Assembly (NCBI GenBank): GCA_024644875.1
Contig: JAHEGY010000010.1
Coordinates: 1-59,502, forward strand
DNA: 59,502 nucleotides
DNA from: Cyclobacteriaceae bacterium
GTDB taxonomy: Bacteria; Bacteroidota; Bacteroidia; Cytophagales; Cyclobacteriaceae
Direction of reading: 5' to 3'
The position numbers and the translations under genes are program-made. Numbering within the stretch: the stretch's first letter is position 1; every line of letters starts with the position of its first letter. Shown here piece after piece: positions 58,425-59,502 of the stretch. The notes under the pieces are model-generated. The model ran no database searches, had not been told where the DNA came from, and was given only the letters and a program-made list of their open reading frames with translations.

Positions 58425-58456
58425 TTTTCATAGTTAAATAAAATATTGTAAATTTG
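58425..58456 (+). promoter_or_regulatory. Promoter of rpsP
   Basis: TTTT at 58425-58428, a 20 nt spacer, then TAAATTTG at 58449-58456. The -7 match is perfect. The expected transcript has a leader of about 40 nt before the ATG at 58506. Confidence 0.5.
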
Positions 58457-58505: not shown

Positions 58506-59502
58506 ATGGCAGTAAAAATTAGATTAGCACGTCGAGGACGTAAAAAACTGGCACTGTACGACGTTGTCGTAGCTGACGTCAGATCACCACGAGATGGTCG
58601 TTATATTGAAAAACTCGGAATATTCAATCCGAATACTGATCCTGTAACCGTTGACATCAATGATGATAAGGCACTTGACTGGATCATGAAAGGGGCACAA
58701 CCCACCGATTCCGCAAGGACAATCCTTTCCAAGAGAGGAATTATGCTGAGAAAACATTTGCAGATCGGGGTTCAAAAAGGCGCAATTACCCAGGAAGAGG
58801 CTGATAAGAGATTTCAGGCATGGCTTAAAGAGCGTGAAGGTAAGAACCAGGCAAATGTTGACCAGATAACCAAGAAGCAGGAAGCTGAAAAGAAATCCAG
58901 ACTGGAGGCTGAAAGAAAAATAAGTGAAGCAAGAGCAGAGGAGTTAAATAAAAAGGCCGCCGCCTTAGCACAGCAAGCTGCTGAAGCTGAAGCTCAGGAT
59001 TCAGAAGAAGCTGACGAGGTAGAACAGGGAAGTGTTGACGCACAGGCTGAAAGTACTGAAGCTCCGGCGGAGGAACCCGCTGAAGCGGTAAAGGCAGAAG
59101 CAGAAACTTCAGATACGAAAAAAACCGAAACTTCATCTGAAGATAAATCTGACGTTGAAGAAAAGGCCGCAGAAAAGGTAGGAGAAGAGCCTAAGCCGGA
59201 AGCGAAAGCAAAGGAAGAGGAAACACCTGAAGATAAAAAAGAAGAAAAACCTGCTGCTGAGGAAACTAACACTGAAGAGACCAAAGCTGAAGAGACTAAA
59301 GCTGAGGAAACTAACACTGAAGAGACCAAAGCTGAAGAGACTAAAGCTGAGGAAACTAACACTGAAGAAACCAAAGCTGAAGAGACTAAAGCTGAGGAAA
59401 CTAAAGAAGAAGTAAACGAGGAGGTCAAGGGAGTTGAACCTGAAAAGGTTGAGGATAAGGCCCCCGAAGCGGAAGAAGCTGCTCCAGCCGCCGAAGAGGC
59501 AG
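58506..59502 (+). CDS. rpsP: Ribosomal protein S16 with a very long acidic repeat-bearing tail, 3'-truncated by the window edge
   Basis: The frame starts at ATG 58506 and is still open at the window edge (332 codons, no stop). Residues 1 to ~85 are ordinary S16 (MAVKIRLARRGRKKLALYDV, the SPRDGRYIEKLGIFNP segment, DWIMKGAQPTDSARTILS). Residues ~95-165 are a Lys/Glu/Ala-rich predicted coiled coil (KKQEAEKKSRLEAERKISEA). From ~165 on the protein is almost purely Glu, Ala, Lys and Thr and includes three 15-residue tandem repeats (254-298). Typical S16 is 80-100 aa; Bacteroidota versions often have a tail, but over 330 aa is extreme. It is opposite in direction to the suc operon. Confidence 0.93.
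   Translation, partial: MAVKIRLARRGRKKLALYDVVVADVRSPRDGRYIEKLGIFNPNTDPVTVDINDDKALDWIMKGAQPTDSARTILSKRGIMLRKHLQIGVQKGAITQEEADKRFQAWLKEREGKNQANVDQITKKQEAEKKSRLEAERKISEARAEELNKKAAALAQQAAEAEAQDSEEADEVEQGSVDAQAESTEAPAEEPAEAVKAEAETSDTKKTETSSEDKSDVEEKAAEKVGEEPKPEAKAKEEETPEDKKEEKPAAEETNTEETKAEETKAEETNTEETKAEETKAEETNTEETKAEETKAEETKEEVNEEVKGVEPEKVEDKAPEAEEAAPAAEEA
59265..59399 (+). repeat. Three 45 bp in-frame tandem repeats in the rpsP tail
   Basis: Units at 59265-59309, 59310-59354 and 59355-59399, each starting ACTAACACTGAAGA and encoding TNTEETKAEETKAEE. The three copies differ at one silent position (G to A in unit 3). Each unit is itself made of shorter ETKAE modules, and a degraded fourth copy (TKEE...) follows. 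Confidence 0.95.

What the first reader, a model, noticed from the sequence alone, without database searches (positions are those of the whole stretch)
58506..59502. Ribosomal protein S16 carrying a >240-residue acidic, disordered extension
The S16 core ends near residue 85, but the frame continues for at least 247 more codons to the window edge: a charged coiled-coil segment, then a Glu/Ala/Lys/Thr-rich low-complexity tail. Bacteroidota S16 proteins commonly carry tails, but one that triples the protein is unusual. On the 30S subunit it would give a long negatively charged arm near the platform/body. It could recruit basic partners, affect hibernation or simply be tolerated expansion (inference).
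Basis: partly seen in the sequence, partly recalled or inferred. Interest (0 to 1): 0.62.

Follow-up and report, generated by a model that had tools for sequence, protein, structure and literature searches.

The report
Ribosomal protein S16 with acidic tail
This is an ordinary ribosomal protein (S16) that ends in a long, floppy, negatively charged stretch; its bacterial family usually carries such a stretch, this one is at the long end of the range but not unique, and its true end is hidden because the assembled DNA stops inside it.

Summary
The reading frame is real: rpsP starts at 58506 and is open to the contig end (the contig is the window), 332 residues so far. Two corrections. (1) Residues 82-150 are the conserved helical extension of Bacteroidota-type bS16 (NCBIfam NF011094 matched over 184 of 186 positions; AlphaFold2 helix 96-172), so the odd part starts near residue 173. 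(2) Acidic tails are lineage-typical: 143 of 148 family genomes searched have S16, in open frames of 159-441 codons (median 214). Of 142 others, 11 have frames of 332 codons or more; I read all 11, and 8 truly have 332 or more residues (336-440), the only other genome of its genus in the sample among them (379). Frame length goes with genus (ICC 0.82). All 126 distinct tails I examined are net negative. The window's tail holds an in-frame 45-bp tandem repeat. Ala/Glu-rich C-terminal low-complexity regions of bacterial S16 are in print (PMC6821194). Most likely it is a flexible polyanionic bristle, tolerated and lightly constrained; its function is unproven. Side finding: in another family of the phylum the acidic S16 tail ends in a conserved ~45-residue module that also ends ribosomal protein L21.

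The parts
58506..59502 (+). rpsP, ribosomal protein bS16, 332 complete codons, 3' end cut by the contig end
58506..58745 (+). universal S16 fold, residues 1-80
   Evidence: PF00886 at 9-67, TIGR00002 at 3-80, Foldseek matches to S16 chains
58791..59021 (+). predicted single long helix, residues 96-172; its first part is the conserved Bacteroidota-type extension
   Evidence: AlphaFold2 model; conservation of 82-150; NF011094
58899..58943 (+). conserved patch of the helix, residues 132-146 (A135 97%, E136 100%, K138 94%, A142 92%, R143 94% of 111 proteins)
59022..59501 (+). acidic low-complexity tail, residues 173-332, net charge -38, pI 4.2, no predicted secondary structure
59256..59404 (+). 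tandem repeat inside the tail: 45-bp (15-codon) unit, 3.3 copies, 99% matches

Best explanation
It is the family's ordinary bS16: the universal fold (1-80), the conserved Bacteroidota-type helical extension (about 82-172), then an acidic Glu/Ala/Lys/Thr/Pro tail that has grown by in-frame duplication of short codon repeats (sequence features shown; the growth by duplication is read from the repeats). On the ribosome the tail most likely stands out from the solvent side of the 30S body as a flexible polyanionic bristle (inferred). I think it has no single fixed partner: its acidity keeps a long appendage off the rRNA and may screen the strongly basic rest of S16 before and after assembly, so content is held loosely while length drifts (inferred, not tested).
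For: Frame and families. Lineage-typical length: 143 of 148 genomes with S16, frame median 214, and ICC of log frame length within genus 0.82 over 108 genomes in 47 genera, with 0 of 2000 permutations as high. The same-genus genome G004 has a closed S16 of 379 residues. 126 of 126 distinct tails net negative, range -88 to -2; 9 of 126 with any aromatic or Cys residue. dN/dS about 0.28 between neighbouring repeat copies, one array from each of 40 tails. AlphaFold2: no secondary structure after residue 172, pLDDT about 40-50 from residue 171 on. In solved Bacteroidota ribosomes the bS16 chain searched by Foldseek is 85 residues long for F. johnsoniae (7jil; sequence 188) and 118 or 97 for P. gingivalis (9i5v, 9i5x; sequence 192); I take this as the modelled part, which fits a mobile arm. 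pI 9.9 for residues 1-145 against 4.2 for 173-332.
Against: Glu-Lys flips between repeat copies are not rarer than a simple codon model expects (17 of 143 single-step changes, 11.9%, against 9.6%), so a demand for negative charge as such is not shown. The helix patch at 132-146 is strongly conserved although the F. johnsoniae and P. gingivalis chains are too short to include it, which suggests a real partner at least for the helix. In another family a conserved module ends the same kind of tail, which speaks against 'only a bristle' there. The end of this tail is unseen. No experiment on any such tail was found.
Confidence: 0.6

Rival explanations
1. The tail is a tether or landing strip: it recruits a basic factor (for initiation, hibernation, folding or RNA decay) or presents a terminal docking element to one.
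For: In family f24 of the same phylum the acidic S16 tail ends in a conserved ~45-residue module (module found in 51 of 58 genomes; 26 of 34 loci read are S16) that also ends bL21 (7 of 34 loci). The helix patch 132-146 is conserved.
Against: A profile of that module finds only the four f24 proteins L124-L127 among the 126 distinct S16 proteins held; the next best has E 2.2. Six of the 126 are cut by a contig end, the window's among them, so their ends are unseen. Tails in the window's family have no fixed end sequence beyond a bias to charged residues, and frame length differs by up to 150 codons (about 1.5-fold) within a genus.
Confidence: 0.2
2. Neutral slippage product: repeats expand and shrink in frame, the cell tolerates them, and the acidic make-up is only what the repeated codons happened to be.
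For: Near-identical 45-bp repeat in the window; tandem arrays in 40 of 126 tails; no avoidance of charge flips; a relative (L033) with a scrambled, non-acidic end.
Against: 126 of 126 tails net negative and nearly free of aromatic residues; dN/dS about 0.28 between copies; frame length clusters by genus. The sequences are related and were not sampled at random, so these counts are not independent.
Confidence: 0.17
3. Artefact: a misassembled or frameshifted contig end gives a false open frame.
For: The contig ends inside the repeat-rich gene, and rimM is lost in the same gap.
Against: Tail content and length agree with closed genes in other genomes, the same-genus one included; the repeats keep the frame.
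Confidence: 0.03

Closest known systems
Bacteroidota-type bS16, NCBIfam NF011094 / PRK14521 (186 positions; 'Bacteroidota-type' is my reading)
   Same: Matched over 1-184 of 186 at 241.8 bits, above the 209-bit cut-off; aligns with bS16 of PDB 7jil (F. johnsoniae) and 9i5v (P. gingivalis) to residues 143-146
   Different: At least 146 residues longer than the model; the extra part is acidic low-complexity repeat
C-terminal Ala/Glu-rich low-complexity regions of bacterial ribosomal proteins (PMC6821194; passages read)
   Same: S16 is one of three bacterial ribosomal proteins there with over 100 LCR-bearing orthologues; 157 of 187 S16 LCRs are mostly Ala and Glu; most ribosomal LCRs lie at the C-terminus
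   Different: Here A+E is 51% of residues 173-332, below that paper's 70% class; Lys and Thr are also common, and the stretch is very long
bS16 C-terminal extension of Cutibacterium acnes (PMC10085706, section 17 read)
   Same: An extension of about 65 residues beyond the E. coli length, with an unresolved flexible end
   Different: Residues 81-150 of the window alone match only three Bacteroidota chains in the PDB and no actinobacterial one up to E 10; docking on uS4 is not shown for this lineage

Membership tests
bS16 (Ribosomal_S16) | PF00886 / TIGR00002 domain above the curated cut-off | tested here: met
   73.3 bits against 27; 91.3 bits against 45.3
bS16 (Ribosomal_S16) | trmD-operon order rpsP-rimM-trmD-rplS | tested here: inconclusive
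   rpsP at the end of C144; end of rimM, trmD and rplS on C248; the joint is not assembled. Order rpsP-rimM (and trmD in L002) read in two relatives
bS16 (Ribosomal_S16) | protein present on the 30S subunit | not testable with these tools
   needs proteomics or cryo-EM
NF011094 bS16 with helical C-terminal extension | full-length match over the equivalog cut-off | tested here: met
   1-184 of 186, 241.8 bits against 209
Ribosomal-protein C-terminal low-complexity regions (PMC6821194) | C-terminal low-complexity stretch | tested here: met
   composition and tandem repeat; that paper's own LCR program was not run
Ribosomal-protein C-terminal low-complexity regions (PMC6821194) | over 70% Ala+Glu, as in most S16 LCRs | tested here: not met
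   81 of 160 residues (51%) in 173-332; shorter pieces were not scored
f24-type S16 with conserved C-terminal module | ~45-residue end module | tested here: inconclusive
   absent from residues 1-332 of the window's protein by profile; the end of the protein is not in the assembly

The most novel reading that the evidence does not exclude
Acidic S16 arms in Bacteroidota are functional tethers. In one family they end in a conserved ~45-residue module that also ends bL21, so that one protein of each ribosomal subunit offers the same docking element to a common unknown partner. The arm of the window's family would be a variant that works through its conserved helix patch and acidic tail.
Probability: 0.12. 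Interest if true: 0.7.

Novelty: new member of a known kind. Interest (0 to 1): 0.27.

Why it matters
As given, the finding adds one long example to a known class of ribosomal-protein tails. It does raise two testable questions: why the helix patch at residues 132-146 of this bS16 type is strongly conserved although the solved Bacteroidota chains seen here stop before it, and what, if anything, binds the C-terminal module shared by bS16 and bL21 in family f24.

Tried and rejected
Tried without success: the rest of the tail through rimM (nothing) and trmD (on C248, which ends inside rimM); an overlap search with the last 140 bases (besides the tail itself, short similar stretches only, one of them in the bS1 gene). 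The tail used as a protein query in the own genome found only itself, though the bS1 gene has a tail of similar make-up, so that call says nothing about other tailed proteins. A 16S rRNA search, to test the h17-length idea of the C. acnes paper, found none in the assembly (its control rang in 9 of 14 genomes). Residues 81-150 alone did not match actinobacterial chains, so I dropped the claim that the two extensions are homologous. The 739-codon frame of G442 is mostly upstream open frame; the protein read is 284 residues. Antisense frames under the tail mirror the repeat and are rejected as genes. ARAGORN found no tRNA in the window.

Limits of the counts: one search lists stop-to-stop frames, which exceed the protein (three of the eleven longest fell below 332 on reading). 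The sets are not random: 39 distinct proteins from the family (best matches plus nine places, eight of them chosen for long frames and one for a frame of 301), 72 distinct named loci (many Hymenobacter) and 15 of the phylum chosen mostly for long frames. 'Tail' there means everything after the equivalent of window residue 148, so it includes the end of the predicted helix. L033 (scrambled end) and six proteins cut by a contig end, the window's among them, were kept. One search left out one of the 143 lengths; one search is the corrected count. The match list was cut, so no phylum-wide length statistics are given. The motif scan missed L124; one search replaces it. That all 85 arrays have periods divisible by three is expected of coding repeats and is not counted as evidence.

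Paper searches. Passages only were seen of PMC10085706 (section 17 whole), PMC10039652, PMC10931766, PMC9976891 and PMC6821194. The F. johnsoniae ribosome paper was not held.

Full report
WHAT IS THERE. The frame starting at 58506 is rpsP. It runs 332 codons to the window edge without a stop. The window is the whole of contig C144 of a 254-contig, 5.06-Mb assembly, 97.35% complete, so probably a metagenome-assembled genome (inference). Named relatives found by S16 are Cytophagales, with titles such as Cyclobacteriaceae, Catalimonadaceae and Flammeovirgaceae; the best identity over residues 1-145 is 72%. Contigs of equal length (for example 413641, 5344, 35908 and 39277 bases) suggest that the window's family holds records with those titles. 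The S16 query has one match in the genome, and the gene is divergent from a 2-oxoglutarate dehydrogenase E1 gene.

THE MISSING END. In the two relatives I read, rpsP is followed by rimM, and in L002 by trmD. In this assembly RimM was not found. TrmD is on contig C248, together with rplS and a dapF-like frame, and the end of C248 carries the last codons of RimM (by comparison with L015). The gap between the two contigs should thus hold the rest of the tail and nearly all of rimM (inference from gene order). The true length of this S16 is unknown.

ANATOMY. Residues 1-80 are the universal S16 fold. Window residues 82-150 align with mean gap fraction 0.00 in 111 distinct proteins of relatives, with conserved positions such as H84, L85, G88, K91, W106 and E136 at 100%, A135 at 97%, K138 and R143 at 94%. 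AlphaFold2 on 41 sequences gives one helix at 96-172, with mean pLDDT of 92 or more in each ten-residue block up to residue 160 and about 40-50 from residue 171 on (mean 69.8, pTM 0.48). Residues 173-332 have net charge -38 and pI 4.2, against pI 9.9 for residues 1-145. A 45-bp unit repeats 3.3 times with 99% matches at 59256-59404.

HOW UNUSUAL IT IS. Of 148 family genomes searched, the own one included, 143 have S16, in stop-to-stop frames of 159-441 codons, median 214, quartiles 190 and 264, 90th percentile 310. Eleven of the 142 others have frames of 332 codons or more. I read all eleven: from the start codon eight have 332 residues or more (336, 337, 344, 346, 353, 361, 379, 440) and three fewer (305, 319, 328). 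The one of 361 ends in a scrambled stretch. Two other family genes that I read run off their contigs (L009, L039) and may be longer. The other genome of the same genus in the sample has 379 residues. One named MAG has 443 (L047). Frame lengths cluster by genus (ICC 0.82 on log length, 108 genomes in 47 genera; largest of 2000 permutations 0.47), yet differ by up to 150 codons within a genus. The window is thus in the top tenth of its family and in keeping with its genus, as far as two genomes can show.

EVOLUTION OF THE TAIL. All 126 distinct tails are net negative and 9 hold an aromatic or Cys residue. Net charge falls with length (r -0.94, about one net negative charge per four residues). 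Tandem arrays are found in 40 of the 126 tails. Neighbouring repeat copies in one array from each of 40 tails give dN/dS about 0.28, but Glu-Lys flips make up 17 of 143 single-step amino-acid changes, against 9.6% expected from a simple codon model. Amino-acid content looks constrained; negative charge as the target is not shown. The sequences are related and not randomly drawn, so these numbers are descriptive.

WHERE IT SITS. In C. acnes the bS16 extension binds uS4 and links the bottom of the body to the shoulder, and the C-terminus of bS16 is among the parts without density (PMC10085706, section 17). For Bacteroidota, the chain lengths given by Foldseek are 85 for F. johnsoniae (sequence 188) and 118 or 97 for P. 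gingivalis (sequence 192). That fits a mobile arm on the body, not the platform. A third sequence (9zcd, 188 residues) was not among the 50 Foldseek rows shown. Whether the helix docks on uS4 in this lineage is unknown.

MECHANISM. Shown: sequence, conservation, repeats, charge, distribution. Inferred: solvent exposure, screening of the basic core, avoidance of rRNA. No call supports a role in hibernation or recruitment of basic partners.

KNOWN OR NEW. A survey of prokaryotic low-complexity regions names S16 among the bacterial ribosomal proteins with most such regions (over 100 orthologues); 157 of 187 S16 regions are mostly Ala and Glu, and ribosomal ones lie mainly at the C-terminus (PMC6821194, passages). 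The window's tail is 51% Ala+Glu, so it is a long, somewhat mixed member of a known kind.

SIDE FINDING. The module was found in 51 of 58 f24 genomes; in an order-wide search it was found in 56 of 61 f24 genomes and in 0 of 36 genomes of other families (the two samples overlap). Of 34 loci read, 26 are S16, 7 are bL21 (all 7 match TIGR00061 above its cut-off) and 1 is unclear because of a scaffold gap. No convincing match in Pfam or the PDB was found. One paper search on S16, L21 and Balneola listed nothing that looks like it (listing only). Among the 126 distinct S16 proteins held, the module is in the four f24 ones only.

Noticed in passing
L150-L183 (family f24 genomes), for example L150, L161, L164; also L124-L127: A conserved ~45-residue C-terminal module (STDMxAKEAIDHI...GFVPEDEDRVTVQRAWESK) ends the acidic tail of bS16 (26 of 34 loci) and bL21 (7 of 34); no convincing Pfam or PDB match.
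   Followed up: partly
L146 1107..3404, - strand (own genome, contig C14): Ribosomal protein bS1 of the same genome (NF004953 at residues 18-602 of 765) runs on for about 160 residues past the model as a Glu/Ala/Lys/Pro-rich tail.
   Followed up: partly
window 58899..58943: The helix patch of bS16 (residues 132-146) is strongly conserved, although the solved Bacteroidota chains seen look too short to include it.
   Followed up: partly
L033 (unnamed family genome G130, contig C229): This S16 tail ends in a scrambled, non-acidic stretch, as from a late frameshift or an assembly error.
   Followed up: no
window 58449..58456: TAAATTTG upstream of rpsP resembles the -7 promoter box TAnnTTTG of Bacteroidota (box recalled, not tested).
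   Followed up: no
own genome, end of C144 and end of C248: Nearly all of rimM is missing from the assembly in the same gap that cuts rpsP.
   Followed up: yes
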